Assembly: GCF_007970665.1 (NCBI RefSeq)
Contig: NZ_CP042430.1
Location: 3,658,001 to 3,722,000 of the forward strand
DNA from: Baekduia soli
GTDB taxonomy: Bacteria; Actinomycetota; Thermoleophilia; Solirubrobacterales; Solirubrobacteraceae
Direction of reading: 5' to 3'
Length of the DNA stretch: 64,000 bases
Part shown: in pieces, positions 12,103-27,793 of the stretch
Layout of the letters: each line of letters opens with the position of its first letter
How positions within the stretch are numbered: position 1 is the stretch's first letter
Made by a program: the position numbers and the translations under genes
Notes under the pieces: generated by a model
The model's input: only the letters and a program-made list of their open reading frames with translations
Database searches by the model: none
Told to the model about the DNA's origin: nothing

Positions 12103-12146
12103 TGGGCCGGGGAGGACTCGAACCCCCACCCGACGGATTATGAGTC
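12103..12146 (-). repeat. att-type repeat 2: tRNA(CAU) 3' half, junction of elements 1 and 2
   Basis: A 44-bp copy of the tRNA 3' half, identical to 27720-27763 except for two bases in the variable loop. It separates the two elements and would be the tRNA-proximal end of element 1 and the distal end of element 2. No 5' tRNA half adjoins it. Confidence 0.87.
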
Positions 12147-12409: not shown

Positions 12410-12726
12410 GCCGCCACCTGCCCGGTCGACTCGGCGATGGCCGCCAGCACCTCGGGAGGCAGCGCCTCCCGCGAGGGAAGGCCGTGCTCGGCGAGATAGG
12501 TCAGCAGCCGGCGGACCGTCGCTGTCTTCAAGCGCTCCCCGCTGTAGACGGCGTCGACGTCGGCCAACGCTTCGCGCAGCTCTCGAATCTCGCGACGGAA
12601 CTTCCGAGCCGGCTGCTGGCCCAGTCCCGGGAGCTCGGCGTGTTCGAAGACGTGTTCGACGATGCCGAGCATGCGCCACGGCGCGGCGAGCTCCAGGTGC
12701 TCGAGGACCACGGGCGACGGGGTCAT
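12406..12726 (-). CDS. hypothetical protein, second gene of a coupled trio
   Basis: 106 aa from ATG 12726, overlapping the upstream stop as ATGA. It appears all-helical (FRREIRELREALADVDAVY, ATVRRLLTYLAEHGL, PPEVLAAIAEST). No family recognised. With its partners it forms the last leftward operon of element 2, next to the distal attachment repeat, a place where accessory or defence genes are often found. Confidence 0.6.
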   Translation of the reverse strand: MTPSPVVLEHLELAAPWRMLGIVEHVFEHAELPGLGQQPARKFRREIRELREALADVDAVYSGERLKTATVRRLLTYLAEHGLPSREALPPEVLAAIAESTGQVAA

Positions 12727-12974
12727 CGCCGCCACCCCTCAGGCGCCAACGCGTCGAGGATCGACGCGTCCTCGATGATCTGTCGCACCCAGTTGCCGGC
12801 GTCGGCGAGGTTCACGACGGCCTCGCCGTCGAAGTACTGCTCGAAGTGCTCACCGGCGATCTTCAGGTCCTCGGCGAGTCGCACGCAGACGGCGTATGAC
12901 GCGGTCTTGCGCTGGGCGTCCGTCAGGTTGACGGGGCCGGGATCGGGCGTGCCGATACCCTTGGTGATGCTCAT
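12723..12974 (-). CDS. hypothetical protein, first gene of a coupled trio
   Basis: 83 aa from ATG 12974 with AGGAGG six bases upstream, an unusually strong site. The sequence is acidic and helical (TASYAVCVRLAEDLKIAGEH, NWVRQIIEDASILDALAPEG). No family recognised. Its strong ribosome site and the coupled downstream genes suggest the three products are made together and may act together. Confidence 0.65.
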   Translation of the reverse strand: MSITKGIGTPDPGPVNLTDAQRKTASYAVCVRLAEDLKIAGEHFEQYFDGEAVVNLADAGNWVRQIIEDASILDALAPEGWRR

Positions 12975-13428
12975 CAGGTCCCTCCTGGTGGGCCATGGCC
13001 CCGGACGCTCCAACGTCGCGGGGCCGCTTTTGTATTGGGGTCGAACTACTACCACTCTCGGTGATCGGCTGCAACCACAAACCGTTTAGTGCTGCTGCGC
13101 GGAGATGCCACCACCGACGCGGCCTGTTGTACACCCTGTTTCCGGCGTAGGCGTATGTACCTGTGCCGGGGATAGGTTAAAAAGCCTTGTGGTTGAGAGG
13201 CTCAAGTGGCGTGTTGCTGACTGGGCAGGTAGCAACATTGGGGCTTGACAAGTTGCGGCCCCGGCCGTTCAGGTCCCGTTCAGAGGCAGCGGCCTAGGCT
13301 CGCGCCCGACGGACGCCCTCGGGACGGGGGCTAGGTGTTGACCACGGCCCTTGCATGGCGGCCCGTATGGGTTTGCGGGGGTCGTGGTCGCCCACCCCCG
13401 CTGCCACACCTGCTGTAACTTGGCGCGG
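12975..13428. other. AT-richer intergenic region upstream of the coupled trio
   Basis: About 450 bp, clearly more AT-rich than its surroundings, presumably the promoter region of the leftward trio. It contains TGTACACCCT at 13128-13137, which recurs inside the palindrome at 23775-23787 upstream of the phage-type operon, and a TTGACA at about 13244. No gene is supported. Confidence 0.4.
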
Positions 13429-13605
13429 GTGAAGCCGTCAGTGCTTGATGAGGCGACCGCCAAGATGCTCGAGCGAGCCGTCCGTCACGGCCTTGACCCA
13501 TGGCGTGTCGTCCACATCCTCGGACTCGATCCCGAGGCCGCCGGCGTGGTCATCGACGCGGCCAACGCAGAACACTCCGCCCCGGATTCCGTGACCCACG
13601 CATAG
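13429..13605 (+). CDS. hypothetical protein
   Basis: 58 aa from GTG 13429. The residues DEATAKMLERAVRHGLDPWR and VVHILGLDPEAAGVVIDAAN look like a compact helical protein. No clear ribosome site and no family; one of few rightward frames in the element. Confidence 0.3.
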   Translation: MKPSVLDEATAKMLERAVRHGLDPWRVVHILGLDPEAAGVVIDAANAEHSAPDSVTHA

Positions 13606-13751
13606 GCCGCAGCAGGTATGCGCCGCGTCGAGGCGAACCAGCTCCTGGGAGCCGACACGATCTTGTCGGCAACCTCTCTGTGAGTTGCACCTGCCGCCCA
13701 CGGCAGACCTGGCGACCGCCGGCCTCAATGAGGGGCCGGCGGACCGCCGTC

Positions 13752-13898
13752 TCACCCGTCGACGCCAGGCCAACCAATGATGGCGACCTCGGCGACGTAG
13801 GGCACGAGCTCGCCGCCGCATCGCGCACACCGAATGCCGGCCACGGTCTTAGCGATCCACTTCAGCCCGCAAGCCACGCACACGAAGCGACGATCCAT
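13752..13898 (-). CDS. small zinc-ribbon protein
   Basis: 48 aa from ATG 13898. Two knuckles, CVACGLKW and CARCGGEL (C-x2-C twice, 17 residues apart), make a zinc ribbon, followed by VPYVAEVAIIGWPGVDG. Zinc ribbons of this size bind nucleic acid or protein partners. One of several small zinc proteins in the element. Confidence 0.55.
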   Translation of the reverse strand: MDRRFVCVACGLKWIAKTVAGIRCARCGGELVPYVAEVAIIGWPGVDG

Positions 13899-13987
13899 GG
13901 GTCCAGGATCCCGCCCGACACATGACGGCATCATCCGTAGTCGTCCGTGCCAACGCTGCGGCATCCCTGCCCTTGCCGCCGTAACTT

Positions 13988-14185
13988 CTAGCGACGTTCG
14001 GCGACCGTCACTGCGTGCAGCGGACAAAGGTGGCCGGCAACCTCGCGCCCATGGAAACGGACAGACATCGCCCACCCGTCCGGCAGCGAGCCGCCCACAT
14101 GAGCCACGAAAAGCTCGCTCGAGCGATCACAACGCGGGTGGTCGCAGACCACGAACCCCGAATGTCCATCTTGGGACACAAACAT
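13988..14185 (-). CDS. small zinc-binding hypothetical protein
   Basis: 65 aa from ATG 14185. Cys/His pairs in VVCDHPRCDRSSELF and GHLCPLHAVTV (C-x4-C and C-x2-H) suggest a single zinc site around a 40-residue core (DGWAMSVRFHGREVAG). The pattern is like small phage and plasmid proteins of unknown function. No partner gene overlaps it. Confidence 0.5.
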   Translation of the reverse strand: MFVSQDGHSGFVVCDHPRCDRSSELFVAHVGGSLPDGWAMSVRFHGREVAGHLCPLHAVTVAERR

Positions 14186-15012
14186 CGTGCCCCAAGGTAT
14201 AGCGCCAGATCGCTCACTGCTGAGCGAGACCTCAGCAACGACGGCGCTCCCTCACGAGCGATACGTCAGATTTCGGACTATGGCGCAACGGCGCTCACAC
14301 AGCGGGCCGAATACACCGCCTGGGAGGGACAACCCGAAGAGACCAGCGTGTGCCCCGGCCTGAGGGGCCGGGGCACACCGGTTTCGGTACTCTCGCAGCA
14401 CGATGTGTGCCGGTTGCGCAATGGCAGCGATGGCAGGGGCCAGCGGAGTTCGGTCCTGGCTGCAGGCCCACCACATGACGTGGCTTACGCCCAGGCGGTT
14501 GCGAGGCGCGACCATCGCGCTGTTCGTGGCGGGAACCCTCGTCTCATCCGTCGGCCTAAGCGGCTCGACCAAAGCGCCGCATCGGCCGGCACCTCAGCAC
14601 GCGGCCTCGCTGCCGCGATAGCAAGACCTTGGCACAGGACGGGGCGCTGGCTCGAGCCGCGCCGGTGCGCCCCTGCGCACATCGCGTCTAAGGCCCCTCG
14701 CAGGCCCGCACAGACCACGAACGTACGTTCGAATAGCTACCCACACGCGAACCTCGAAATCCCCGCAAAAGGGCCGAAAACGCAGAGGGCAGACGGGGCG
14801 GTCCCCAGACAACACCGCGAGCCACCCCGCCACACGCCTTCACTCGCCAGCCCCACGGCGTTTCTACGCGGAGCCGGTACGCAACACTACCCCCAGTCAA
14901 CACCTACAACAACGCCTAGCGGCGGCCAAAATGCCAGGGACGGGCTGTGATTTTAAGGTGACCGGGGCCGATCGCGCGGCGACACTCCCCCGCCCCGTGC
15001 CCTGCCACAGAG
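14186..15012. other. 830-bp stretch without a supported gene
   Basis: Longest gene-poor stretch of element 2. It contains the perfect hairpin at 14348-14378. A short rightward frame at 14403-14621 has a Cys-x2-Cys start and one hydrophobic segment but no ribosome site, so it is not called. Codon bias is absent in the other frames. Confidence 0.4.
14348..14378. terminator. perfect 13-bp hairpin
   Basis: Stem 14348-14360 pairs perfectly with 14366-14378 around a 5-base loop (TGAGG). There is no T run on either side. It may end transcription from the leftward genes to its right, or be a structural or protein-binding element. Confidence 0.5.
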
Positions 15013-15297
15013 CTATCGGCTCGGGCCGGCGGAGGCGTTTGGATGCGCTGCCTCAAGAGATCGTGCGCGCTGCGACATCAGTACAGATCTCACCGTGGAG
15101 GCGTGCCATCGTTGACCGCCGGCCGAGGTCGGCACGCCCCACGCGTCGAGGCGTCCAGCAATGTCCCGAAGCGTCATGCCGTCGCGGCGCCAGCCCAGGA
15201 GCTGCTCGAGCTGCCAGTCCGGGACCGGCGTGGGCCGACCACGAGCGGATGAGCAATCCGCAGCAACGGCCTCTTGATCCCTTGCGGTTGTTGGCAT
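15013..15297 (-). CDS. small protein resembling a serine-recombinase 'Recombinase' domain
   Basis: 94 aa from ATG 15297 with AGGAG seven bases upstream. Residues 30-75 (LGWRRDGMTLRDIAGRLDAW, GVPTSAGGQRWHASTVRSVL) match the helix-turn-helix of the Recombinase domain in large serine recombinases, but the catalytic N-terminal resolvase domain is absent. It could be a fragment that survives as a DNA-binding protein, perhaps a regulator or recombination factor. The good ribosome site argues that it is expressed. Confidence 0.6.
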   Translation of the reverse strand: MPTTARDQEAVAADCSSARGRPTPVPDWQLEQLLGWRRDGMTLRDIAGRLDAWGVPTSAGGQRWHASTVRSVLMSQRARSLEAAHPNASAGPSR

Positions 15298-15453
15298 TGC
15301 GAGACTCCTGTTCTCTGGCCTGTTCCCCAGCACCCTTGTACACGTGACGGATTCGCGCTCACGAGGCGCCCTGGCGTTGTGTGAGAACGACATCACACAG
15401 TTACGCGGGCGCGCGGCGCCAAGCACAATCGGCGCATCAAGCGAACGACTGGT

Positions 15454-16149
15454 CTACTGGCGTAGGACCAGGCTGAACTCCGAGCAGACCTGCAGTAGCT
15501 CGGGGACGGCGTTGGTCAGGGGTGTCTGCACGGGTGTGGGGCGCAGCCGTGCGCGGCCCTCAAACAACACGACGCAGCCCAACGTGTCTAGAGCCGAGGC
15601 AAAGCGCAGTCCCGACGCGCCCTTGTCGTATAAGTCACGCGAGAAGTTCTGGGTGATCTCGCGGTCGCTCGACGTAATCTCAGACACGTCAAGCTGCAGC
15701 AGGTCGTGGGCGGCCAACAGCAACGCGTGGGCGCTAGCCAGCTGTTCCATTAGCCGGCGCTCCCGCAGGTCGACCAGGTGGCCCGAGCGGGCAACGCGCC
15801 CCGCCACTAGCACGTTGTTTTGGCGCCACACGCGCGTGACCTCGCCTGCCGGGGACAGGCGATGGCCAGCCGCGATGCCCTGGGCATGCTGCAACTCCGC
15901 GAACTCGGCTCGGGCCTTGAGGTTGGGTCGCAGCGGCGCCAGCACCTCGCGCAGGCAGGTCAGCCTATGGTCCGCCGCGTAGATGGTGCGGTATTGGTGC
16001 TGAGGGTCGTCGAACCGGCTATTCCACGAGCACACCGCGCGGGGCGGGTAGCCGAACGGCCCGTCAACGTGACCCACCCGCCAGACGAACTCCAGCCGCG
16101 TCGCCAACGGCCGGCTCGCGCTGATCGCCAGCGGCGGCGGATCGATCAC
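15454..16149 (-). CDS. RES domain toxin
   Basis: 231 aa starting at GTG 16149, which overlaps the antitoxin stop as GTGA. RES hallmarks are the Arg in VWRVGH, SRFDDPQHQYRTIYAADHRL with the conserved Arg and Tyr, CLREVLAPL with the Glu, and near the C-terminus ASGLRFASALDTLGCVVLFE containing the conserved Ser region. RES toxins degrade NAD+ (phosphorolysis or hydrolysis) and are held by an adjacent Xre/MbcA-type antitoxin, which is exactly the order here. It is somewhat longer than the usual 150-190 aa. Likely stabilises the element or acts in phage exclusion. Confidence 0.8.
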   Translation of the reverse strand: MIDPPPLAISASRPLATRLEFVWRVGHVDGPFGYPPRAVCSWNSRFDDPQHQYRTIYAADHRLTCLREVLAPLRPNLKARAEFAELQHAQGIAAGHRLSPAGEVTRVWRQNNVLVAGRVARSGHLVDLRERRLMEQLASAHALLLAAHDLLQLDVSEITSSDREITQNFSRDLYDKGASGLRFASALDTLGCVVLFEGRARLRPTPVQTPLTNAVPELLQVCSEFSLVLRQ

Positions 16150-16532
16150 TCAGACGAGCGAGCGAAGGCCTTGGCTGCCGGGACGACCTGGCGCAGGTCT
16201 TCGGCCGAACGGGCATGACGAACCACCCACGCCGGCGCCTCGTCGCCCATCGCCGGATGAGACCCGAATAGCCAGGACTCCGCGGTAGCCTCGTCGTAAG
16301 CACCGGCGATCATCCGTGCCGCGGTGTAGGCAGTACGGATGCGCAGCTCCTGGATCGAGTTGGGCTGGTCGGTGCCGGACATCCAGGCTGATAGCAGCAC
16401 GGTGTCGGTCAAGCCGCACAGGTACACGCACAACTGGTCGCCGAACTGGCGTACCAGGACGCCGACCAGCGTTTCGGGCGATCCGGCCCGAGCTTCGCTT
16501 TCGATGCTTTCGCTGAGCAGTTCAGGGGTCAT
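16146..16532 (-). CDS. Xre/MbcA/ParS-type antitoxin partner of the RES toxin
   Basis: 128 aa. The C-terminal half has the toxin-binding domain pattern of the family (DUF2384-like): helix, then TAESWLFGSHPAMGDEAPAW and a final helix ending AAKAFARSS. The middle (QELRIRTAYTAARMIAGAYD) is helical. The N-terminal DNA-binding region is weaker than in classical Xre proteins. Position directly before and overlapping the RES gene by 4 bp fixes the assignment. It is expected to autorepress the pair. Confidence 0.75.
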   Translation of the reverse strand: MTPELLSESIESEARAGSPETLVGVLVRQFGDQLCVYLCGLTDTVLLSAWMSGTDQPNSIQELRIRTAYTAARMIAGAYDEATAESWLFGSHPAMGDEAPAWVVRHARSAEDLRQVVPAAKAFARSSE

Positions 16533-16659: not shown

Positions 16660-16965
16660 TTATGCGCCGAGCACGTGCCGGGCATCGGCCTCCACATGGC
16701 CCAGCGTCTCCACGGCCAGGTGCGTAGCCACGTGCTCGAACGTGTTCTCGGGCTCCCCGAGGATGTCGAGAAGGAACGTGATGTCTAGGCCGCGACCGAA
16801 CAGACGCAGGGCTTCGTCGCGGGTGACGGGCTCCGGCGCCGTGTCGAGAAGGCGCAGTAGCTCGCGCGTGTGCGTGAGGAGCCGGAGGCAATCGCGGTGT
16901 CGTCTGGTCTCGCACTCCCAGGCTTGGTCGCCGTGGGTGTAGATGGCCTCGTCGAGGTCGAGCAC
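16660..16965 (-). CDS. hypothetical helical protein at the end of the phage-type operon
   Basis: 101 aa from GTG 16965, two bases after the stop of the 1077-aa gene, so almost surely translated from the same message. Sequence is acidic and helical (DCLRLLTHTRELLRLLDTAP, LGRGLDITFLLDILG shape). No family recognised. It is the last gene of the leftward eight-gene block. Confidence 0.6.
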   Translation of the reverse strand: MLDLDEAIYTHGDQAWECETRRHRDCLRLLTHTRELLRLLDTAPEPVTRDEALRLFGRGLDITFLLDILGEPENTFEHVATHLAVETLGHVEADARHVLGA

Positions 16966-16967
16966 GG

Positions 16968-19900
16968 CTAGCCGCCCGACTTCTGCAGGAAAGCGTCGAG
17001 GCGCTTCTGCAGGTCCTTGTTGGGGTCGCGGGTGACGAAATCGTTGATCTTCCTCTGGAAGCGCTCTTCGTCGGTCAGTGGCCGGCGCTTCAGCTTCGTG
17101 GCGGTCGGGATGCCGACGCTGGCCTCGAGCCGGTCCCGCTGACCGGCGAGCTTGTGCTGCTTGTCGAGTAGCGCCTGGTAGGCGGGCGCGTACTGGCCGT
17201 GGTGCTTGGGGTCTTCGGCCTGTCCGAAGTCGCGCATGTGCGCGAGCTCGATGCCGACGTCGCGCAGCTCGGTCTTGACGGTCGACAGCGCTCTGGCGTC
17301 GGTCTTGTACGGAGTCGCCTTAATGCCCGTGGCGAACGCCAGCCGTGCCTGCGCGGAGGTCTGGTTGCGGGTGCCGCGGTCGGGCAGGAGCTGCTGGATA
17401 GCGAAGTTGCCTTCGGGCAGCGAGCGGACGGCGTAGTCGGTCTTGGCGTACCACGCCCAAGCCTTGTGACCGGTGTTGGGGTCGATCCAGTCGTGAGTGA
17501 CGCCGAGCTTTTTCGCCAGCCCGGGCACCGTTTCGGCGAGCACTGCGATGGCGTCGGGCGCGCGGGTGTAGGGGTGCTGTGGGTCCTGGATCTGGCCCTG
17601 GAAGAAGATGGAGTGGTTCTCGAGGATCTCGCCGACGGTCTTGAAGAACGTGACGCGGTTGGCGATGTTCTGCCACTGGTCCTGGGCGCTGGGCGAGAGC
17701 TGGTTGAGATCGGTCTGCGGCGGGGCGGCGAACAGGTTGTAGACCTTGCCGTTCCACCGGATCGGGATCGGCAGGCCGCGCTGCTCGTAATCCTTGAGCT
17801 GCGATGCGTACTCGTCATACGAGCCGAAGCCGGCGGCTTGTGCGGCCGTCGTTAGGACCTTGGAGAACGTGGCGGCTTTGCCCGGCCGGGTCAGGATCTT
17901 CATTGCCTGCAGCCGGGTGTTGCGCGCAAAGAACGTGTAGAACGGGATCACGCGGCGCGCGAAGGCTCGCTCGAACGGCGTCACGTCGCCGTAGTCGAAG
18001 TGGTGCTTGGCGACCCAGTCGGCGGCTTGGGCGGGGCTCAGGCCGCGCTTGCGAGCCGACAGGTAGGTCGCGAGCCGCGGGAGGTCCTCGCGGTACTGGG
18101 AGGCTCGTTGGATCGGGCCGGCCTTGCCGGTGAGGTCTGTGAGCTCGCGGCCGATGAAGCCCTGGCCGACCGCTCCGTGCGCCTCGGCCTCGGCGAGCAG
18201 TTCGCCGTGGGTGTAGGTCTTGTCACCGATCTTGATGTTCTTGGTCAGTCGCTTCGGTGCGGTCGCGCCGCCGGTGAAGTGCTCGGCGGAGCGCTCGGCC
18301 CGGTTGCGTACTGCGCGGGTCTCGAGGATCTGGGCGGCCTGCCTGAAGCTGTGAGCTGACGTGTCGCCCAGGAACGCGTTGAGGCTGTCGCCGTAGAGGT
18401 TGCGGAGGTGGTACGCGGGGTTCGGGACCGTGTAGGCGGTCTTCAACGCGCCCTGAGCCTTGTCGTAAATTCGTGCCGGCCCTTCGGCCGCTGCTCCGCC
18501 CCGGAGGCGCTGGGTGAGGTCGTGGACGTCGGCCAGGTGCAGCACGACGTAGCGGCCGGGGCGCTCGCCGCCGACGACCCTTGCGATCTCGGCCTTGTCG
18601 GGCTTGAGGTCGCCGCGTACATCGGTCTTGCCGACCGCCTCGAGCCCGTCGGGGTTGACCTTGTAGACCATGTCGCCATCGTGGAGGTGCAGTTCCTGGT
18701 GAGGCTCGACGGGACGGGCATGGTTGGCGACCGACTGCCAGAAGTCGTGGAGGCTCGCGCGAGCGGCTTCCTTGTTGGCCTTCTTCGCGACGATGCGCGG
18801 CAGGTCCTCAGTGAAGGGGCTATTGCCCTCCGCGCGGAGCTCGGCGAGGGTCTTGTCGATCTTGCGCGCGTGCTCCGGCGCGACGGTGACGCGGCCTCCA
18901 CCCTTGCTCTTGCCCGCCGGACCGACCATGTCCTTGTGGACGTGCGGAACGTAGTTCTCGCGGGCGGGACCGGTGAGGTCGCGCGCGGCAGCATCTGAGT
19001 GCATGCGACTGAGATCGCCGCTGATCGTCGTCGCGACATGCTGCAGGCGCACCGGCAGCTCGTCGACGGTGCCAGCCTCGATCGCATCGATGACCGACTG
19101 ATAGTCCTCGGGCTGCTGGATGGCCTTGGGGAGCGCGTGGCCGTAGCGACGCTCGATGGCCTGGGCAGCGACGTGGGTGCCGGCGCGGTGGCGCGCCTCG
19201 GCCTCGCGGAAGGCGGCGTGCTGCTCGGGGGTGCGCGTCTTGGGCCGGAAGTCGTGGATGATGGCTTTGCCGACGCCTTGGACCGGGCCGGACTCGCGGA
19301 CCTTCGTCGCGACCTTCGACGCTCCCGTCTTGCGCATCAGGTAGGAGGTGGCGCGACCGGAGGTCTTGATTTCGCCGCCGATGTCGGTCAGCGGGATGTG
19401 GCCGCGAAGACCGATCTGCAGGCCCTTGTTGAGCTCGCGCTCGAGGCCGTCGGCGGCCACCTTGCGCAGCGGGGCTCCGGTGCCGGCCGTGAGATAGGTC
19501 GTTGGGTCCGTGCCAACGTCGAGGGCAAACCCGCCGACCGTGCGCAGCGCCTTGTTGTGGACGCCGAGGTGCTGCAGGACGGTGGAGAACGTCGTCTTGT
19601 CCTTGCCCTCCAGGCCCCGTGTCAGTGCGTGGTGCGCGGACCCAACGCCCTTGCCCTGGGCGATCGCGTCGGCCGCCCCGGCGATGCCGTGAGACGGCCT
19701 AGCGACGGTGTCTAGGACCTTGACGGCGGGGGCTACTACTTTCGCCTGGATTGCAGCCTGCTGGATGCGGGTGCCGACCTTGACCGGCCGCTGACCGGTC
19801 TCCAGGAACCGGCGCATCTCCGCATCAGAGCGCGGCCGGTCGACGATCGTCTTGTCGATCGGGACGAACACCGTCTTGCGGTTCGACAGATCCAGCTGCC

Positions 19901-20201
19901 CGTTGGTCGGGGCCTGCCGCCCGTCGCTCGCGGCCTGGACGTCGTTCAGGTAGGCCTGGGTGCGCTTATAGGCAACCGCCCGGTTGCGGTCCGTGTTGCC
20001 CTTGGTGTCCTTCGCCTCCGTCTGGCGGCGACGGATCTGCTTGACCTCGCGATCGACTACGGGCTTGGCCTGGCGCATCCCGTAGTCGGCGCCGCTGGAC
20101 GCCACGTCCCCCTTCGGCGGTTTCACGACCGCGGGCTTGGCGGGCCTGCGCAGCTTCGGGGTCGCCTTGCCGGCCCCGCCGCCCGTCTCGATGCCGCGCA
20201 T
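16968..20201 (-). CDS. large phage-type protein (LPD38-like, putative internal virion protein)
   Basis: 1077 aa, start ATG 20201 overlapping the upstream stop as TAATG. The basic N-terminus leads to ALDVGTDPTTYLTAG, ENYVPHVHKD (about 420) and the block PNPAYHLRNLYGDSLNAFLG (about 610), followed by EDLPRLATYLSARKRGLSPA and RRVIPFYTFFARNTRLQ (about 770). These are hallmarks of very large polyproteins of actinobacterial and marine phages (large polyvalent protein domain 38 type), thought to lie inside the virion and enter the cell with DNA. No protease, peptidoglycan hydrolase or polymerase motif is seen. It is the strongest evidence for phage ancestry of element 2. Confidence 0.65.
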   Translation of the reverse strand: MRGIETGGGAGKATPKLRRPAKPAVVKPPKGDVASSGADYGMRQAKPVVDREVKQIRRRQTEAKDTKGNTDRNRAVAYKRTQAYLNDVQAASDGRQAPTNGQLDLSNRKTVFVPIDKTIVDRPRSDAEMRRFLETGQRPVKVGTRIQQAAIQAKVVAPAVKVLDTVARPSHGIAGAADAIAQGKGVGSAHHALTRGLEGKDKTTFSTVLQHLGVHNKALRTVGGFALDVGTDPTTYLTAGTGAPLRKVAADGLERELNKGLQIGLRGHIPLTDIGGEIKTSGRATSYLMRKTGASKVATKVRESGPVQGVGKAIIHDFRPKTRTPEQHAAFREAEARHRAGTHVAAQAIERRYGHALPKAIQQPEDYQSVIDAIEAGTVDELPVRLQHVATTISGDLSRMHSDAAARDLTGPARENYVPHVHKDMVGPAGKSKGGGRVTVAPEHARKIDKTLAELRAEGNSPFTEDLPRIVAKKANKEAARASLHDFWQSVANHARPVEPHQELHLHDGDMVYKVNPDGLEAVGKTDVRGDLKPDKAEIARVVGGERPGRYVVLHLADVHDLTQRLRGGAAAEGPARIYDKAQGALKTAYTVPNPAYHLRNLYGDSLNAFLGDTSAHSFRQAAQILETRAVRNRAERSAEHFTGGATAPKRLTKNIKIGDKTYTHGELLAEAEAHGAVGQGFIGRELTDLTGKAGPIQRASQYREDLPRLATYLSARKRGLSPAQAADWVAKHHFDYGDVTPFERAFARRVIPFYTFFARNTRLQAMKILTRPGKAATFSKVLTTAAQAAGFGSYDEYASQLKDYEQRGLPIPIRWNGKVYNLFAAPPQTDLNQLSPSAQDQWQNIANRVTFFKTVGEILENHSIFFQGQIQDPQHPYTRAPDAIAVLAETVPGLAKKLGVTHDWIDPNTGHKAWAWYAKTDYAVRSLPEGNFAIQQLLPDRGTRNQTSAQARLAFATGIKATPYKTDARALSTVKTELRDVGIELAHMRDFGQAEDPKHHGQYAPAYQALLDKQHKLAGQRDRLEASVGIPTATKLKRRPLTDEERFQRKINDFVTRDPNKDLQKRLDAFLQKSGG

Positions 20202-21616
20202 TAGCTGCCCGCCGGGTTAGCGAGCTCGCCGATCTTCTGCACCCAGCTCGAGGGCTTGGGCGGGGCGGGCTTGGCCTGCGGGAACTTCGAGACGCCGCGC
20301 TGCTTGAGTCGCTGCGTCGTCTTGGGCCCAAGGCGTCCGTCGTGCGTGGCGGCCTGTACTGCCGCGCGTGCGAGTGCGCTGTTGACGTTCTCGCTGATGA
20401 GGAAGTCGACGAGCAGGCCGGGGTCCTTGGTGAACTTGCCGCTCGTGTCAGACGACAGCGATCGATGCGCTAGGCGCAGCGCCTTGTCGAACGCATCGTT
20501 GGCGGCCTGGCGCTGACGACGCGTGTTGCCGAACTCGTCCTTGGTGTTCGCCGGTGAGGTCGAGGTCTTGTTGTCGTGAGCGATGATCGTTCGGCGTGCG
20601 TCGGGCGTCATCTTCTGCCACTCGGCGAGCGAGTACCCGTGCTTCGCGGCCACCGAGGCGGTAGCCGACGTGTCTGCAGCCTTCGGCTTTCCGGTGGACG
20701 GGTAGTAGCCGTGAGCTTGGAAGTACGCCTGGTCAGCCGCGGAGCGCGCGGTATCGGTCTTCGTCTTGGCGGTCTTTGCGGCCGTGCCCGCCGCGGTGGC
20801 CACGTTATTGGTGATCTGCGAACCGGTGAGCGCCGCCTTCAGCGCGTTGTCGGCCTCGTCGGAGAGCACCTTGTCGTGCGTCGTCGTGCGGAACGTCCCC
20901 AGGTCGCTGGCCAGCTGCTTGACCGCGGCGTCCTGCTTGTCCTGCTCGCCGCGCTGCAACCCGAAGCTGTTCAGCCCCATGTTCGTGAGGTAGTCGTTTT
21001 GGTTGGCGCCGAGCGTCTGCGCGAGTGCAGCCTGGTTCTGGATGCCCGCGGAGCGAACCGCGGCCGCCGCCTGCGCCCTGGCGGCGCCCTCTGCGTCCAT
21101 CGGTGCGCCGGCAAGCTGGCCCGTGTCGCCCTGGGCGGCGGTCGCCATTCCCTGCAGTGACGTCACCTGCTGCCCGGATGCGGTCTGCTCCGCCGCGCGC
21201 GCGGCGTTGATCTGGTCCCGGTAGGCCTGGAACCAACCCGGGAGGCTCTGGCCGCGCTGCGCAAGCGCCGCCTGCTGCGAACCGAACTGGGCCTTGGCCA
21301 TCGCATCGACGACGGCCTTGATCTGCTTGTTGGTATAGCCGGACCCAGGGGCAGCTGGAGCGTTGTTATAGGTGTTTGTCTTGCGCTGCTTCAACTGGTC
21401 GGCCGTCAGCGCGCTATCCGGCAGCTTCGACCGCAACCCAGGATGAGCGAGCCATTGCGCCAGACGGTCCCCACCCGTAGGGATACCGTGAGGCGCAGTG
21501 GCACGGGACCCTGACGACGAGAACGAACCAGGCGCCGGCCTCCCCGGCCGGCGCAGCTTGAGATTGCCCGTCGTGGGTTGCGGCCCACTGCTCGAGAACG
21601 TCGGGGGCTTACTCAT
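20201..21616 (-). CDS. phage-type structural or ejection-associated protein
   Basis: 471 aa from ATG 21616, overlapping the end of the preceding gene. Low-complexity Gln/Ala/Thr-rich sequence (AQRGQSLPGWFQAYRDQINA, GATAAQGDTGQLAG style) resembles long helical rods of phage internal or tail-associated proteins. The C-terminus has ATHDGRLGPKTTQRLKQRGV, which looks like half of a peptidoglycan-binding repeat, and ends PKPSSWVQKIGELANPAGS. Immediately precedes the 1077-aa gene, as paired ejection proteins often do. Function is inferred from context and composition only. Confidence 0.55.
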   Translation of the reverse strand: MSKPPTFSSSGPQPTTGNLKLRRPGRPAPGSFSSSGSRATAPHGIPTGGDRLAQWLAHPGLRSKLPDSALTADQLKQRKTNTYNNAPAAPGSGYTNKQIKAVVDAMAKAQFGSQQAALAQRGQSLPGWFQAYRDQINAARAAEQTASGQQVTSLQGMATAAQGDTGQLAGAPMDAEGAARAQAAAAVRSAGIQNQAALAQTLGANQNDYLTNMGLNSFGLQRGEQDKQDAAVKQLASDLGTFRTTTHDKVLSDEADNALKAALTGSQITNNVATAAGTAAKTAKTKTDTARSAADQAYFQAHGYYPSTGKPKAADTSATASVAAKHGYSLAEWQKMTPDARRTIIAHDNKTSTSPANTKDEFGNTRRQRQAANDAFDKALRLAHRSLSSDTSGKFTKDPGLLVDFLISENVNSALARAAVQAATHDGRLGPKTTQRLKQRGVSKFPQAKPAPPKPSSWVQKIGELANPAGS

Positions 21617-21953
21617 ACGTCTCAAGCTCCTTGTTGTCGAGCGCCTGCGAGATACGGACGCGGTCGGCCATGCTCAGCCGCTCGCCGCGCTGGGACTTCT
21701 CAATCAGCTCGTCGAGCTCGGCGTCGCGATCCGCGATCAAAACGGGGTCCTCGCGCTTGGCGATGTCCCTGTGCATCTCGATGCGCACGGCAAACTCCTG
21801 CTCCCGGGCGTCCCGGCTGGACGGCAGGTGCTTGAGCTCATCGAGCGCTGCCAGGATCAGGCGAGGCTGATCGATCGCTTCGGGCTCCACGGCGTAGGCG
21901 CCGGCAATCATCTGGTCGAGCTCGTCGTCGGAGTACGGCTCGAGCTCGCTCAC
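21609..21953 (-). CDS. small acidic helical phage-type protein
   Basis: 114 aa from GTG 21953, which overlaps the upstream stop as GTGA, and itself overlaps the next gene by 8 bp. Acidic, all-helical (SDDELDQMIAGAYAVEPEAI, EQEFAVRIEMHRDIAKRE, ELDELIEKSQRGERLSMADR). Such proteins before an internal-virion gene could be scaffolds or chaperones. No family recognised. Confidence 0.6.
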   Translation of the reverse strand: MSELEPYSDDELDQMIAGAYAVEPEAIDQPRLILAALDELKHLPSSRDAREQEFAVRIEMHRDIAKREDPVLIADRDAELDELIEKSQRGERLSMADRVRISQALDNKELETYE

Positions 21954-22546
21954 GCCGCCGCCTTCACGGGCTTCTTAGCCGGCGGCTTGACCTGGGCCGC
22001 CCAGCCGGCGCGGACGAACTCGAGCTGCTCGCGCACCGATGTAAGTTCCTGGGCGGTGGCAGCCAGCTCGGCGCGGACCCCGTCGAGCTCGTCACGCAGC
22101 GGCTGCGTCTCGGCGACCACTGCGGTGAGACGATCAATCTCGACCCGAGCAAGGCCGGCGTCGGTCTGGGCTTGCTGTAGCGCGTCTCGCGCCTGCTCAG
22201 ACACGTTGCCGCCAGCGAGCAGCGCCAGCTCCACGACAACGTTCTCCGGCGGGATGCCGAACGGTGGGTCGCCCGCCAGAAGGCTTAGCGCCTTCACCTC
22301 GTCCGGCCCCGGCGCGTACTGGCCCCGCTCGTTCGACGAGCAAGAGAACAGGGTGTAGACCGCGGGGTGGTCGTCGGGCATTCCGGCGGCGTGGTTCGCA
22401 ACGCTCTTCAGGAGGGACGCGCCGTGCTGTGCCTGGCCGAACGCGTCGACCGCGAGGGCAGCGATCGCCTCGAGCTTGGCGGCGATCTGGAGTCCGAACG
22501 CCGGGCTCGCCTGGAGGCCGCGGATGGACGAGAGGTTGTCGCTCAT
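21950..22546 (-). CDS. phage-type hypothetical protein with C-terminal coiled coil
   Basis: 198 aa from ATG 22546. The first 100 residues are Ala-rich and globular (GLQIAAKLEAIAALAVDAFG, YTLFSCSSNERGQYAPG); residues 110-180 form a long coiled coil (LDGVRAELAATAQELTSVRE, QLEFVRAG) and the tail is Lys/Pro-rich (KPPAKKPVKAAA). Coupled to neighbours on both sides. Unknown function, probably structural. Confidence 0.6.
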   Translation of the reverse strand: MSDNLSSIRGLQASPAFGLQIAAKLEAIAALAVDAFGQAQHGASLLKSVANHAAGMPDDHPAVYTLFSCSSNERGQYAPGPDEVKALSLLAGDPPFGIPPENVVVELALLAGGNVSEQARDALQQAQTDAGLARVEIDRLTAVVAETQPLRDELDGVRAELAATAQELTSVREQLEFVRAGWAAQVKPPAKKPVKAAA

Positions 22547-22548
22547 GG

Positions 22549-23019
22549 TTAGTCCTGGTCCTGGGTGAATCGCATCCGGGGGCATCCGGAGATTGCCGGG
22601 AGCCCGTTCAAGGTGGCGAGGTTGGCGGTGATCGTGGCGGTGCCGCCCGCAAGGATCTCGACGCTGCCGCCCCGCGCGAGCGTGTACGTGATGAACGTCT
22701 GGTAGGCCGTCGCGCGCTCCGCGATAGCCGCAGCGGTCGGCTCGGTGATCACGCCGACCTGGATGCTGTGCAGGCCCGAGCCGTCCTGGTTGTAGAGCCG
22801 TGGGCTTGTGACGAGAGCCCCCGGCAACCATCCACCGGTCGTCTGGTCGATGTAGGTCGCCTGAACACCGTCGGCGCGACACCAGCGCGGCGCACCGCCC
22901 GGCTGCAGGTTGTCGATCGTCAATGGCCGGTTCTTGACCGTCGACCCGTTGCCCTCAATCGGCATGATCTCGGCCGGGTTGTAAAACACCCGCGCCGCCG
23001 TTCCTGGAGTAGTCGACAT
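22549..23019 (-). CDS. phage structural-type hypothetical protein
   Basis: 156 aa from ATG 23019, overlapping the upstream stop by one base (TGATG). Beta-rich (VFYNPAEIMPIEGNGSTV, GLHSIQVGVITEPTAAAI, GGTATITANLATLNGLPAIS). The pairing with the next upstream beta protein is typical of head-decoration or neck modules. No family can be named. Confidence 0.6.
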   Translation of the reverse strand: MSTTPGTAARVFYNPAEIMPIEGNGSTVKNRPLTIDNLQPGGAPRWCRADGVQATYIDQTTGGWLPGALVTSPRLYNQDGSGLHSIQVGVITEPTAAAIAERATAYQTFITYTLARGGSVEILAGGTATITANLATLNGLPAISGCPRMRFTQDQD

Positions 23020-23324
23020 CAGCCGGTAAACGCGACGAGCTGGACGGTGACACCCGACAGGTTTGTAGCGTTCGCGACCTCCGCCGTAGCCGTGTACGCC
23101 AACAGCTTCAGTGACGGCACGTCGAAGTACACCTCCGTCGCAGCGCCCGCACCCGCAACCTTGATACTCGAGATGACGAACGCCGGAGCGCTCTCAAGCC
23201 CGAGCTGGGCGAGCGTCAAGGGCTCGCCGCCGGTCGTGTAGCTGGAGGAGAACACCACCTCCGCGACGACAAAGCGCGAATCGCCCCGCGTCGGCTTCGT
23301 AAACGTGCGCGTGATAGTTGCCAT
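23019..23324 (-). CDS. phage structural-type small beta protein
   Basis: 101 aa from ATG 23324. The lines VAEVVFSSSYTTGGEPLTLA and LKLLAYTATAEVANATNLSG closely follow a widespread small virion protein of tailed phages, in which a beta sheet carries a 'Y-x-T-G-G-E-x-L' turn and an 'EVANATDLSG' strand near the end. That family is known from podovirus-like and environmental phages as a structural protein. This makes a virion role likely, which is surprising as no capsid gene accompanies it. Confidence 0.65.
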   Translation of the reverse strand: MATITRTFTKPTRGDSRFVVAEVVFSSSYTTGGEPLTLAQLGLESAPAFVISSIKVAGAGAATEVYFDVPSLKLLAYTATAEVANATNLSGVTVQLVAFTG

Positions 23325-23326
23325 TG

Positions 23327-23539
23327 CTAGGCCACCGATCGAAGATGATGGACAAGCTCTCGCGCGTCGGCCGTAGCCTCAACGCCCGACGCAGTACGGA
23401 TGAGACGGACAAGCGATGCCGGGACCTCGATCCAGTCGCCCACCGGCGCGGGACCGTCCCCGTAGACAATCCGAATGTCTTCGGGCATCAGCCGAACATG
23501 GTCACGAGCCTCTGAGCGCAGGACGCTTCCGCCAGCCAT
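23327..23539 (-). CDS. small hypothetical protein, first gene of the phage-type operon
   Basis: 70 aa from ATG 23539, two bases before the next gene. Sequence LMPEDIRIVYGDGPAPVGDW and LVRLIRTASGVEATADAREL suggests a small alpha/beta fold. Being first, its upstream region (23540-24125) carries the likely operator sites of the block. Confidence 0.6.
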   Translation of the reverse strand: MAGGSVLRSEARDHVRLMPEDIRIVYGDGPAPVGDWIEVPASLVRLIRTASGVEATADARELVHHLRSVA

Positions 23540-24125: not shown

Positions 24126-24611
24126 CTACGCTGCGAGCAGGGCCAGGAGCAGGAGTTCGTCGTCGGAGAACTCGGGCAGCGCGTACAGCTCGGGGTAGAC
24201 GCGGCGCAGCTCGATCGGCGGAAGAGGCGCCAAAGCTGTGATCGCCTGGTCCGCCTCGTCAAGCGTCACGGTCGCCCGGCCGGTAAGGATTCGCTTGAGC
24301 TTCTGGCGCTCCCAGCCGATACGCCCAGCCACCGCGTCCTGCGATCCCAGGTGCGCTACCTGCTCCAGGAGGAACCGCCGCAGTGGCAGAGCGTCCAGGA
24401 GCTTGCGTCCCTCGGCGTCCCCGGCAACCGCCGGCAGCGCCACCGCGACAGCCGGCATTTCCGCCGCCTCGACGTCGTGGCCGCACCAGTAACAACGCCC
24501 GCCCCACCAGCCGTCGTCTTCCCAGACACCCGGATCGTTGTGATGCCTGTCGCTGCTGGAGAAGATCAGACTGTGATCGCACACGCAGAACTTGGGGCCC
24601 TCGGTGCGCAT
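24126..24611 (-). CDS. zinc-binding helix-turn-helix-like protein
   Basis: 161 aa from ATG 24611, starting right at the stop of the preceding gene. The N-terminus has FCVCDHSL and GRCYWCGHDVEAAE (C-x-C-x-H and C-x2-C-x-H), a likely zinc site; residues 85-135 read as a Cro/C1-like helix-turn-helix (LGSQDAVAGRIGWERQKLKR, ILTGRATVTLDEADQAITAL). A transcriptional regulator of the element is the simplest reading. Acidic helical C-terminus. Confidence 0.55.
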   Translation of the reverse strand: MRTEGPKFCVCDHSLIFSSSDRHHNDPGVWEDDGWWGGRCYWCGHDVEAAEMPAVAVALPAVAGDAEGRKLLDALPLRRFLLEQVAHLGSQDAVAGRIGWERQKLKRILTGRATVTLDEADQAITALAPLPPIELRRVYPELYALPEFSDDELLLLALLAA

Positions 24612-25064: not shown

Positions 25065-25075
25065 CCACGCCACCA

Positions 25076-25561
25076 TCAAGCCGCTTCGTCCTCGAGCTCG
25101 GCCGCGGCGTCAGCTTGGCCCTGCTCGATGCCGCGGCAGGCGGCGCAGCGCATGACCCCGCCGGGATCGCGGTGGAACTGCCGGCCGCCGGCGCAGGCAC
25201 ATACCGCGCTACCTCGAGACAAGAGCTCGCGCACCGTGGCCAGCGCGGCGGGCGCCTGGTCCGGTCGGCCTTTGCGCTGGCCGGCAACCCGGGGACGGCG
25301 CGCGGTTACCTCCGTTGCGAGCTGCGCGGCGCTTGGCCGCCACTCGGCGCGGCCGCCGGACGCGAGACCGATCAGCGCCTCGTGAACGAGTTGTGGGTCG
25401 TGATGTCCAAGGACCGTGGCGTAGACGGCGAGGTCGCTGGCCAAGAGGCGCTTGGGCCAGCCCCGCTTCAACAGCGCGAAGGTGTCCCGCCAGCCGAGCG
25501 CCTCGACACGGTCCCAGTCTTCGTGACGCAGCGCGGCTACGAGCTCTTCCCGGGGTGTCAC
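25076..25561 (-). CDS. putative helicase-loader-like / replication protein
   Basis: 161 aa from GTG 25561, overlapping the excisionase stop as GTGA. Residues 15-85 (DTFALLKRGWPKRLLASDLA, LGHHDPQLVHEALIGLASGG, EWRPSAAQLATEV) have the helical layout of small phage helicase loaders, where a final 'F-x-P-x-x-x-x-L' closes the domain. The C-terminus adds a zinc ribbon-like part (CACAGG ... MRCAACRG). Position after the excisionase fits an early replication gene. The assignment is tentative. Confidence 0.45.
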   Translation of the reverse strand: MTPREELVAALRHEDWDRVEALGWRDTFALLKRGWPKRLLASDLAVYATVLGHHDPQLVHEALIGLASGGRAEWRPSAAQLATEVTARRPRVAGQRKGRPDQAPAALATVRELLSRGSAVCACAGGRQFHRDPGGVMRCAACRGIEQGQADAAAELEDEAA

Positions 25562-25758
25562 GCCGCGGTGCCCGAGAGCCAGTGCTCGATCTCGACGCGG
25601 ACGAATCGGACGCGCCGGCCGAACCGGCGACAGGGCATTCGGCCTTCTCGTGCGAACGCGAGGACCGTGGTTCCCGGGATGCCCAGAAGTTCGCCGACCT
25701 GGTCCGCGGTAAGGAGCGGCTCGTCAAGGGTGATGCGAGGTGAGTTCATGGACGGCAA
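25558..25758 (-). CDS. excisionase-type helix-turn-helix protein of element 2
   Basis: 66 aa from ATG 25758. A MerR/excisionase DNA-binding domain fills the protein: LLTADQVGELLGIPGTTVLA, FAREGRMPCRRFGRRVRFVR, VEIEHWL. It is related to the excisionase of element 1 (10169-10456). It starts the early leftward operon and is preceded by the dyad at 25807-25822. Confidence 0.8.
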   Translation of the reverse strand: MPSMNSPRITLDEPLLTADQVGELLGIPGTTVLAFAREGRMPCRRFGRRVRFVRVEIEHWLSGTAA

Positions 25759-25848: not shown

Positions 25849-27135
25849 CTACATCATCAGTTCACCGGCTGGCGCCACCTCGATCGAAAACGCCGCGCTC
25901 AGCTTCGCTGCGACATCGTTTCGGGGGACGCTGTGCACATAGCGCATCGTGGTTGCGATGTCGGAGTGGCCCATCCAAAGCCGAACATCACTTAGCGGCG
26001 CAACCCGGACAGCCAACGAGCCAAAGCAGTGCCGGAGATCGTGCAGCCTGATGGGATTTTCCTTCGTCCGGAGGTGACCCAGGCCAGCACCGTCCAAGGC
26101 GGCATAGAACGCACGCCGCAGGTCGTTGTCGTTGAACGGCCCTCCCATCTGCGCCGGGAACACGCGGTCCCCAGGCTCGAGGAAGAACTCTCTCCGGCTG
26201 ATCGCATCGAGGGCTCGGGCAGCCTGGTCAATCAGCGGTACCGAGCGCACAAGCCCAGACTTGGGCGGCTTCTCCGACGCCCCGGCCGGCGCCGACGTCG
26301 GGGCGTTGCGCCGGACGTGCACGATCGCATGGGCGAAGTCGACGTCCTCCCACCGCAGCGCCCGGAGCTCGCCGAGGCGAAGCCCGGTGTACGCAGCAAA
26401 GCGGATCGTCGCTGCCGTCTGGTCAGCCCACGCCCGGCACTGGTCGCTCGCGTGCTGATCGCCGTCGACCGGCGCCCAGGCTCCGGCTGCCGCCCGCCCC
26501 ACCGCTTCTACCTCGGCAGGCTCGAGCACATTGAACGCGCCAGAAGCCCTCACGCGGACCTTCTCGGCCCGAGCGGCCGGATTCGCCTCCAGGAGGCCAT
26601 CCCTGACGGCGCGGCCCAGGACGCCGTGGAGCACAACCTGCGCTTGCTGCACCGTGCGCGGCGCCTTGCCCGCGTCGAGCATCGCTTCGCGGAACGCGTC
26701 GACCGTTGCCGTCGTGATGGACGCCAGGGGCGTCGCGCGGCCGATACGCGGCTCGAGATGCGTTCCGACGATGCCCTTGTAGCCCCGGTAGGTGCTCGGC
26801 TCCCGGTCCCGCTTCGCCCGGGCGAGGTAGATGTCGACCGCGTCCCCGAAGGTGGCCCCGGCGTTCTTCGCGCGCACCGCCGGCCTCGCACCCAGCAGCT
26901 CCTGGAGCGCCTGCTCGGCCATCTTGGGCGTCAGATAACCCTCAGGACAGGATCCGTCGGCCGCACGCCACACGACGGCGCCTCTGGGCGTCCTGCGGCT
27001 TGTGGGCTTGATCCACGCTGGGCCTAACGCCGTCCTGGTCCGCTTCCCATCCGCGGTCGCGTTGTGTACGGCGATCCAGCGGCGGCCGCCGCCCCAATCC
27101 TTCACCACGAGATGGCCCGTCGCCGGCTTACGCAT
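25849..27135 (-). CDS. tyrosine-type site-specific integrase of element 2
   Basis: 428 aa from ATG 27135, which overlaps the upstream gene's stop by 8 bp; a longer frame to 27219 has no homology at its start. Arm-binding-like N-terminus (GHLVVKDWGGGRRWIAVHNA, TPRGAVVWRAADGS), core-binding domain, then the catalytic domain with Arg in YTGLRLGELRAL (about 252), LHDLRHCFGSL (about 365), MGHSDIATTMRYVHS with His and nucleophile Tyr (about 398). Homologous throughout to the element 1 integrase. It lies next to the tRNA attachment site, separated only by one small gene. Confidence 0.94.
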   Translation of the reverse strand: MRKPATGHLVVKDWGGGRRWIAVHNATADGKRTRTALGPAWIKPTSRRTPRGAVVWRAADGSCPEGYLTPKMAEQALQELLGARPAVRAKNAGATFGDAVDIYLARAKRDREPSTYRGYKGIVGTHLEPRIGRATPLASITTATVDAFREAMLDAGKAPRTVQQAQVVLHGVLGRAVRDGLLEANPAARAEKVRVRASGAFNVLEPAEVEAVGRAAAGAWAPVDGDQHASDQCRAWADQTAATIRFAAYTGLRLGELRALRWEDVDFAHAIVHVRRNAPTSAPAGASEKPPKSGLVRSVPLIDQAARALDAISRREFFLEPGDRVFPAQMGGPFNDNDLRRAFYAALDGAGLGHLRTKENPIRLHDLRHCFGSLAVRVAPLSDVRLWMGHSDIATTMRYVHSVPRNDVAAKLSAAFSIEVAPAGELMM

Positions 27136-27565
27136 CGTCGCCAGGCGTCCAGCCAGAGCGAATGACCTCAGGGAGAAGCTCTCCCACCCAGCCCCCCATG
27201 GCGGCCGAGGTTCGGACAAAGGCCGCGCTTGCGATTCGATCTGGGATCTGGACGCCGAGGTAGACGGCGCCCGGCACCTCCCACGCTAGGTCGATCACCC
27301 CACCGTCCGGTCCCGTGAGCCATGCGTGCGCGATGGGGTGGCCGACAAGGCCGGCGGAGACCGCGACGCCCTCGGTGTAGGTGACGCTCGGATCTCTCAT
27401 CCAGCGCTGCGCGGAGGCGTAGCACCCGTGCGGCTTCTTGTTCCGTCGACGCCCCCACCCCGTGGGAACGGGCCGGCCTGCCTGCTCCCGCCCGTGGTCG
27501 ATGAGGAAGCGCTCGAGCTCCCTGATCTCTGCCATCGGGGCAATCATCGTCTTCACGTCATGCAT
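27128..27565 (-). CDS. small protein with Cys-His-Asp order (papain/transglutaminase-like?)
   Basis: 145 aa from ATG 27565, GAGG five bases upstream. After a helical, Arg/Lys-rich N-terminus come KPHGCYASAQRWMRD (Cys about 50), HPIAHAWLTGPDGGVIDLAW (His and Asp about 83-94) and VYLGVQIPD. Cys, then His in 'HAW', then Asp in 'V-I-D-L-A-W' is the order of papain-like and transglutaminase-like catalytic triads and recurs in short phage proteins of unknown function. The gene lies between the tRNA attachment site and the integrase, and is coupled to the integrase. Catalysis is a prediction only. Confidence 0.6.
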   Translation of the reverse strand: MHDVKTMIAPMAEIRELERFLIDHGREQAGRPVPTGWGRRRNKKPHGCYASAQRWMRDPSVTYTEGVAVSAGLVGHPIAHAWLTGPDGGVIDLAWEVPGAVYLGVQIPDRIASAAFVRTSAAMGGWVGELLPEVIRSGWTPGDDA

Positions 27566-27719: not shown

Positions 27720-27793
27720 TGGGCCGGGGAGGACTCGAACCCCCACCAAACGGATTATGAGTCCGCTGCTCTACCCGGTTGAGCTACCGGCCC
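27720..27793 (-). tRNA. tRNA with CAU anticodon (Met, or Ile2 if lysidine-modified)
   Basis: 74 nt with full cloverleaf: acceptor GGGCCGG/CCGGCCC, D stem GCTC/GAGC, anticodon stem GCGGA/TCCGT with loop CTCATAA (anticodon CAU), T stem GGGGG/CCTCC and loop TTCGAGT, discriminator A. CCA is not encoded. C4-G69 and C5-G68 are compatible with TilS recognition, so the isoleucine-AUA type is possible; elongator methionine is equally so. Its 3' half (27720-27763) is the attachment site used by both integrative elements. Confidence 0.93.

What the first reader, a model, noticed from the sequence alone, without database searches (positions are those of the whole stretch)
16660..23539. Phage-structural operon without capsid, portal or terminase
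Eight overlapping genes include a small beta protein like known virion proteins, a coiled-coil protein, and a 471 + 1077-aa pair like internal or ejection proteins, yet no packaging, head or tail gene is recognisable in the 15.6-kb element. Open frames are intact, arguing against simple decay. One option is a satellite that supplies its own internal proteins while borrowing a helper's capsid; another is a previously undescribed virion type.
Basis: inference. Interest (0 to 1): 0.7.

Follow-up and report, generated by a model that had tools for sequence, protein, structure and literature searches.

The report
Capsid-less elements with phage ejection protein
A 15.6-kb integrated DNA element carries a bacterial virus's DNA-delivery protein gene block but none of the genes for building or filling the virus shell, and four other elements of this kind turned up in related bacteria, so this looks like a recurring kind of parasitic (satellite-like) element rather than a single broken virus.

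Summary
Eight tightly packed minus-strand genes (16660-23539) lie in an element bounded by a 28-bp repeat at tRNA-Met (12103-27720), and no terminase, portal, capsid, adaptor, tail-hub or lysis gene was recognised in it. The 1077-aa protein is a divergent homologue of the large last virion gene of podoviruses; complete phages with TerL, portal and capsid carry it. The 101-aa beta protein has relatives beside TerL in podophages. A new virion type is therefore not supported.

The block is also not simply one truncated prophage. Four further att-flanked elements (14-28 kb) in the same bacterial family carry the large protein without portal, capsid or TerL. On the tree they interleave with complete phages (at least 4 changes). 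A reverse search with the portal over 232 genomes found only complete phages. The integrase belongs to a general tRNA-targeting pool; its best match is another of these elements.

Best explanation (about 0.5): helper-dependent satellite-like elements that carry a podoviral ejection module and borrow head and packaging. Main rival (about 0.3): defective prophages. The window element lacks a recognisable replication gene and has about 2.3 kb of apparently non-coding DNA, so it may be decaying. Virion incorporation, helper and mobility are untested.

The parts
12103..12130 (+). left att repeat of the element (28 bp)
   Evidence: exact repeat of 27720-27747
27720..27747 (+). right att repeat, inside tRNA-Met (27720-27793, minus strand)
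25849..27219 (-). tyrosine integrase (start codon uncertain)
   Evidence: Pfam Phage_integrase 7.7e-23; best relatives in element G009 and the tandem element
25558..25749 (-). HTH_17 excisionase-type protein
   Evidence: Pfam HTH_17 1.7e-9
25076..25561 (-). 161-aa protein of unknown function
   Evidence: gene call; no Pfam match
24126..24611 (-). probable HTH regulator, 161 aa
   Evidence: Pfam HTH_31 E=2.6e-5, just below the curated cut-off
23327..23539 (-). operon gene 1, 70 aa, unknown
   Evidence: ORF; 2-nt gap to next gene
23019..23324 (-). operon gene 2, 101-aa beta protein related to small podophage proteins encoded beside TerL
   Evidence: 42% identity to IMG/VR podophage loci; relative beside TerL in G167; AF2 mostly beta, pLDDT 73
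22549..23019 (-). operon gene 3, 156 aa, unknown
   Evidence: 1-nt overlap; no relatives
21950..22546 (-). operon gene 4, 198 aa, coiled-coil type
   Evidence: only weak coiled-coil matches
21609..21953 (-). operon gene 5, 114 aa, unknown
   Evidence: 4-nt overlap
20201..21613 (-). operon gene 6, 470-aa Ala/Gln-rich protein in the place of the podoviral partner of the large internal protein
   Evidence: position and composition only
16968..20201 (-). operon gene 7, 1077-aa podoviral large internal (ejection-type) protein
   Evidence: homologues in complete podophages; tree
16660..16965 (-). operon gene 8, 101 aa, unknown
   Evidence: 2-nt gap from gene 7
16146..16532 (-). likely antitoxin of the RES pair
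   Evidence: weak Xre_MbcA_ParS_C match, E=0.16, and position
15454..16149 (-). RES-domain toxin-type protein
   Evidence: Pfam RES 4.5e-14
13100..15400 (.). stretch with almost no coding pattern
12284..12974 (-). two or three small overlapping genes of unknown function

Best explanation
The block is the late operon of a helper-dependent, satellite-like integrative element. A tRNA-Met-specific integrase (with an HTH_17 excisionase-type protein) moves the element. The operon encodes the delivery part of a podovirus virion: the 1077-aa large internal protein, its 470-aa partner, and small virion-type proteins. On infection by a related tailed phage the helper would supply capsid, portal, terminase, tail hub and lysis; the element's own internal proteins would enter the procapsid and be ejected to carry its DNA across the envelope, or would compete with the helper's proteins. 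Shown: att-bounded element, absence of recognisable head and packaging genes, homology of the large protein to podoviral virion-module genes, recurrence in five elements with at least four changes on the tree. Inferred: expression, incorporation into virions, helper dependence, mobility, and whether the effect on the helper is piracy or poisoning.
For: Five att-flanked elements carry the large protein with intact ORFs and no portal, MCP or TerL: window 15.6 kb (28-bp repeat, tRNA-Met), G005 17.3 kb (27 bp), G067 19.7 kb (48 bp, tRNA-Arg), G049 14.3 kb (46 bp, tRNA-His), G009 28.5 kb (51 bp, tRNA-Gly). In the large-protein tree these interleave with complete phages and strongly supported branches force at least 4 changes. 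Reverse control: a portal profile over the same 232 genomes found 5 genomes, all with complete phages, none a head-only remnant. The window integrase belongs to a tRNA-targeting pool shared with element G009 (55%), the adjacent tandem element (54%) and a terminase-bearing element, and is only distantly related (27%) to that of the G001 prophage, which has the closest large protein. Sister elements carry replication genes (RepB primase plus AAA_25 helicase in G005 and, by homology, G009; DUF3987 in G067) and defence-type cargo. Sizes mostly fall in the 7-20 kb quoted for phage satellites (PMC13376191 abstract). GC3 of the 1077-aa gene is 0.89, so the coding pattern is intact.
Against: No helper is known, and no TerL related to these phages was found elsewhere in the complete host genome. 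The window element has no recognisable primase or replicase and about 2.3 kb of apparently non-coding DNA. No packaging-redirecting gene (TerS, capsid remodelling) was identified; the only scaffold hit is chance-level. G005 and G049 lack a detectable partner gene and G009 keeps a tail hub, so the retained set varies. The control asymmetry (5 versus 0) is small, and the elements were found by searching with the large gene.
Confidence: 0.5

Rival explanations
1. Defective prophage: a podovirus prophage lost head, packaging, tail-hub and lysis genes by deletion, and the remaining late genes have no function of their own.
For: The block is collinear with podophage order (beta gene near TerL first, partner plus large gene last). 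The element has no recognisable replicase, no packaging gene and about 2.3 kb of apparently non-coding DNA. The set of retained genes differs between elements.
Against: No relic of the lost genes in any of five elements. The same large gene is kept intact each time while the portal search found no head-only remnant, though 5 versus 0 is a small sample. The integrase belongs to a general tRNA-targeting pool and is only distantly related to that of the nearest full prophage. Several sister elements carry replication and defence genes.
Confidence: 0.3
2. Anti-phage island: the internal proteins are retained as decoys that enter helper particles and make them non-infectious, without packaging the element.
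For: Sister elements carry defence-type genes such as Schlafen/AlbA_2 and an HD phosphohydrolase; the window element carries a RES toxin pair.
Against: No data on phage yield; it does not by itself explain the intact att sites and integrases of all five elements.
Confidence: 0.1
3. The large protein is a multidomain 'polyvalent' protein delivered with DNA by an integrative or conjugative element rather than a virion component of a helper phage.
For: Very large proteins delivered with DNA are known from phages and conjugative elements (PMC5512222); in G005 and G049 the large gene stands without a detectable partner.
Against: No known enzymatic or polyvalent domain was found, no conjugation genes were recognised in the window element, and all other homologues lie in podophage virion modules.
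Confidence: 0.07
4. Previously undescribed virion type with its own capsid among the small proteins.
For: Several small proteins of the block have no relatives.
Against: The beta protein belongs with ordinary podophages, its model matches no capsid fold, and the large protein is podoviral.
Confidence: 0.03

Closest known systems
Podoviral internal virion / ejection proteins (large last virion gene of Microbacterium phage Shocker gp37, ctEqG8, ctsm1931, the Patulibacter MAG contig and the G001 prophage)
   Same: Homologous large protein with conserved central region; same position after a 370-560-aa (813 in G080) Ala/Gln-rich gene at the end of the virion module
   Different: In the window element head, packaging, tail-hub and lysis genes are absent
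Capsid-forming PICIs (cfPICI)
   Same: Satellite with part of a virion gene set that depends on a helper for the rest (as described in PMC10690885 and PMC11389934)
   Different: cfPICIs encode capsid and packaging and borrow tails; here the complementary part (internal/delivery proteins) is encoded and head and packaging are absent
P4-like elements, PICIs, PLEs, PICMIs
   Same: att-flanked integrative elements of roughly 7-20 kb with integrase and regulator
   Different: None is described with an ejection-protein module in the papers found here; the window element lacks an identified replicase or packaging redirector
Streptomyces Mulch/Flayer satellites (PMC10690885)
   Same: Actinomycetota satellites with partial virion gene sets and no replicase
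   Different: They encode terminase, portal and capsid; the window element has none of these
Defective podovirus prophage
   Same: Collinear subset of podoviral genes
   Different: No relics of missing modules, the same gene retained in several elements, integrase of a general tRNA-targeting pool

Membership tests
Phage satellite (general) | att-flanked integrated element of about 7-20 kb with integrase | tested here: met
   15.6 kb, 28-bp repeats at tRNA-Met, integrase
Phage satellite (general) | own regulatory and replication genes | tested here: inconclusive
   Probable regulator present; no primase/helicase found in the window element; RepB primase/AAA_25 in G005 (G009 by homology) and DUF3987 in G067
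Phage satellite (general) | helper-dependent induction and packaging | not testable with these tools
   needs phage and host cultures
Phage satellite (general) | hijacks packaging (TerS, cos/pac mimic or capsid remodelling) | tested here: inconclusive
   No TerS or known remodelling protein found by Pfam/PHROGs; cos/pac mimicry was not searched for
cfPICI | encodes capsid, portal and packaging genes | tested here: not met
   none by tblastn or profiles, and no ORF large enough for TerL or portal
Complete podovirus prophage | TerL, portal, MCP, adaptor, tail hub, lysis | tested here: not met
   sensitivity checked by leave-one-out, weakest for TerL
Defective podovirus prophage | pseudogene relics of the lost modules | tested here: not met
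   no relic at E<1e-3 in five elements; a clean deletion would leave none, so this lowers but does not exclude the rival
Podoviral large internal (ejection) protein | sequence homology to the large last virion gene of podoviruses | tested here: met
   about 23-33% identity, phmmer E from 1e-98 to 1e-6
Podoviral large internal (ejection) protein | packaged in the virion and ejected | not testable with these tools
   no proteomics; no confident structural match (AF2 pLDDT 49; PDB best 9k3a 'Tail protein' E=0.035)

The most novel reading that the evidence does not exclude
A previously undescribed class of phage satellites, arisen several times in one actinobacterial family (probably Solirubrobacterales, since one relative is a Patulibacter MAG), whose only or main virion contribution is the ejection (internal) protein module. 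This is the complement of capsid-forming PICIs: the satellite brings the DNA-delivery proteins and borrows the helper's head and packaging, or poisons the helper with them.
Probability: 0.38. Interest if true: 0.8.

Novelty: new variant of a known kind. Interest (0 to 1): 0.6.

Why it matters
Satellites described so far either encode no virion genes, remodel the helper's capsid, or bring capsid and packaging and borrow tails. Elements that keep only the internal/ejection protein would show that the delivery step can also be the pirated or substituted part of a virion. They would give a natural system to ask whether ejection proteins set host range or satellite-helper specificity, or serve as anti-phage decoys. 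It would also mean that small capsid-less 'prophage remnants' should be re-examined.

Tried and rejected
(1) New virion type or hidden capsid among the small proteins: not supported. The beta protein has podophage relatives beside TerL, its model matches no capsid fold, and no large enough ORF remains. (2) Block always part of a larger prophage: rejected by four further capsid-less elements. (3) Missing module elsewhere in the host genome: no related TerL in G000. The generic Terminase_6N/6C Pfam searches missed the known TerL of G001, so their negatives carry no weight. (4) Structure of the 1077-aa protein: AF2 failed (pLDDT 49, pTM 0.30, mostly helical), so no fold search was run on it. (5) PHROG/Pfam annotation of the eight-gene block: nothing above chance; elsewhere in the element only HTH, integrase and RES. 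(6) genome-contig scans: A2 gave nothing; A3 gave only the Patulibacter MAG contig. Viral-contig scans for the G067 large protein, the 470-aa and the 156-aa proteins: none. (7) Sequence homology of the 470-aa partner to other partners: none by phmmer/hhalign. (8) A first reading that G005 carries a broken serine recombinase was my gene-caller's error; its N-terminal part is in frame. (9) Promoter scan uninformative in this high-GC genome. (10) Literature: no paper found linking satellites to ejection proteins alone; subscription journals are largely absent from the library.

Full report
WHAT IS THERE. The operon is real. Eight genes on the minus strand, 16660-23539, are spaced by -5 to +2 nt, and the two large ones show the codon-position GC of genes (GC3 0.85 and 0.89). 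They sit in an element bounded by a 28-bp exact repeat, 12103 and 27720, the right copy inside tRNA-Met. The rest of the element is an integrase, an HTH_17 excisionase-type gene, a probable HTH regulator, a RES toxin with a likely antitoxin, and a few unknown small genes. About 2.3 kb (13100-15400) has almost no coding pattern. A third att-like copy at 3615 reveals a second, 8.5-kb element in tandem with its own related integrase.

WHAT THE PROTEINS ARE. Neither Pfam nor PHROGs names any gene of the block. The 1077-aa protein is homologous (about 23-33% identity) to a large protein at the end of the virion module of tailed podoviruses: ctEqG8, Microbacterium phage Shocker gp37, ctsm1931, an IMG/VR contig, and a complete prophage in a same-genus genome, G001. 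In those phages it follows a 370-560-aa (813 in G080) Ala/Gln-rich protein. The window's 470-aa protein has that place and composition but no detectable sequence similarity. Internal virion (ejection) proteins generally lie after the tail genes in podoviruses and diverge fast (PMC10386132), so 'ejection protein' is an inference from position and homology, not a demonstrated function. The 101-aa beta protein has relatives immediately beside TerL in IMG/VR podophages and in the G167 phage. The other small proteins have no relatives found.

WHAT IS MISSING. tblastn with all proteins of the complete phages and six-frame profile searches for TerL, portal, MCP, scaffold, adaptor and tail hub found nothing in the window element. 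Leave-one-out tests show that the portal profile recovers 8/8 and the MCP profile 8/9 left-out phages; the TerL profile is weaker, at 5/7 with E<1e-3. The size argument (besides the pair and the integrase, no coding-type ORF above 231 aa) independently argues against TerL and portal. A TerL profile finds no relative elsewhere in the complete host genome.

IT RECURS. Searching relatives with the large protein gave complete phages or prophages (G001, G228, G080, G298) and four more att-flanked elements without portal, MCP or TerL. G005 (17.3 kb, 27-bp repeat) has an intact serine recombinase, RepB primase and AAA_25 helicase. G067 (19.7 kb, 48-bp repeat, tRNA-Arg) has a 491+1426-aa pair, DUF3987 and an HD phosphohydrolase. 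G049 (14.3 kb, 46-bp repeat, tRNA-His) has the large protein alone. G009 (28.5 kb, 51-bp repeat, tRNA-Gly) also keeps a gp10-like tail hub. In the large-protein tree the window protein pairs with the G001 phage (97/98), G067 with the G228 phage (100/100) and G049 with G009 (90/93), and at least four label changes are forced by strongly supported branches. The capsid-less state therefore arose, or the gene was exchanged, several times. Because the elements were found by searching with the retained gene, I ran the reverse control: a portal profile over the same 232 genomes of the order. It hit five genomes, and each locus is a complete phage with the portal among other head and tail genes, so there were no head-only remnants. 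Five against zero is suggestive, not conclusive.

WHERE THE BACKBONE COMES FROM. The window integrase is closest to that of element G009 (55%) and of the tandem neighbour (54%), and belongs to a pool of tRNA-targeting integrases found in 46 of 151 related genomes. The G001 prophage, which has the closest large protein, has only a distantly related integrase (27%). In the same set of genomes other small att-flanked elements carry other fragments of phage morphogenesis: G107 (9.4 kb) TerL with a TerS-like gene and AAA_25, and G072 (14.4 kb) prohead protease, capsid and HNH. This mosaic favours integrative elements that acquire one phage module over simple truncation. The collinearity of the window block with phage order still allows an origin by deletion.

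HOW IT WOULD WORK. Shown: an att-bounded element with intact integrase and late operon, podoviral affinity of the large and beta proteins, absence of recognisable head and packaging genes, and recurrence. Inferred: on infection by a related podovirus the element excises, expresses the operon, its internal proteins co-assemble with the helper's capsid, and the particle delivers element DNA, or the foreign internal proteins spoil helper particles. No experiment supports these steps.

KNOWN KINDS. The closest functional analogues are phage satellites. cfPICIs encode capsid and packaging and borrow tails, and the Streptomyces Mulch/Flayer satellites encode terminase, portal and capsid (PMC10690885). 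A 2024 review lists the families P4, PICI, cfPICI, PLE, PICMI, VEIME and Tycheposon (PMC11389934). In the searched open-access library I found none defined by ejection proteins alone. Of the named families tested, cfPICI membership is not met; general satellite membership is met for size, att sites and integrase, inconclusive for replication and packaging genes, and not testable for helper dependence.

VERDICT. The interpretation as satellite is plausible (0.5), defective prophage is the main rival (0.3), and a new virion type is not supported. The recurrence, not the single locus, is what makes this worth following.

Noticed in passing
window 3615-12103: Second, tandem 8.5-kb element at the same tRNA-Met site: one-mismatch att copy, own integrase (10434-11855, 54% to the first), HTH_17-like gene, Replic_Relax protein, an MpsC protein and genes that look like ferritin-type proteins.
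   Followed up: partly
L136/L137 (G107 C1, about 2072437-2081808): 9.4-kb att-flanked element at tRNA-Arg with integrase, excisionase, TerL with a TerS-like gene and AAA_25 helicase but no capsid: terminase-only satellite-like element.
   Followed up: partly
L132 4077-18451 (G072 C1): 14.4-kb att-flanked element at tRNA-Arg with HNH, prohead protease, capsid protein, NlpC/P60 tail-type protein and AAA_25 helicase: cfPICI-like element in an actinobacterium.
   Followed up: partly
window 13100-15400: About 2.3 kb inside the element with almost no coding pattern and no match to phage proteins.
   Followed up: partly
L031+L032 (39,735-bp contig JALRCL010000045.1): An apparently near-complete podophage contig binned into a Patulibacter MAG; carries the closest relative of the G067 pair.
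   Followed up: partly
L127 6237-19689 (G008 C7): 13.5-kb element at tRNA-Met with a related integrase and a CHAT-domain protein and no phage genes detected: the tRNA-Met site looks like an integration hot spot.
   Followed up: no
L011 (G005 element): Element with two recombinases (tyrosine integrase and intact large serine recombinase) and a collagen-like GPPGPPG protein of 179 aa.
   Followed up: no
L011, L015 and L045 (sister elements G005, G067, G009): Defence-type cargo: Schlafen/AlbA_2 (G005), HD phosphohydrolase (G067); by sequence look only, a Gp37/three-Cys-motif-like pair (G067) and TIR/NYN-like proteins (G009).
   Followed up: no
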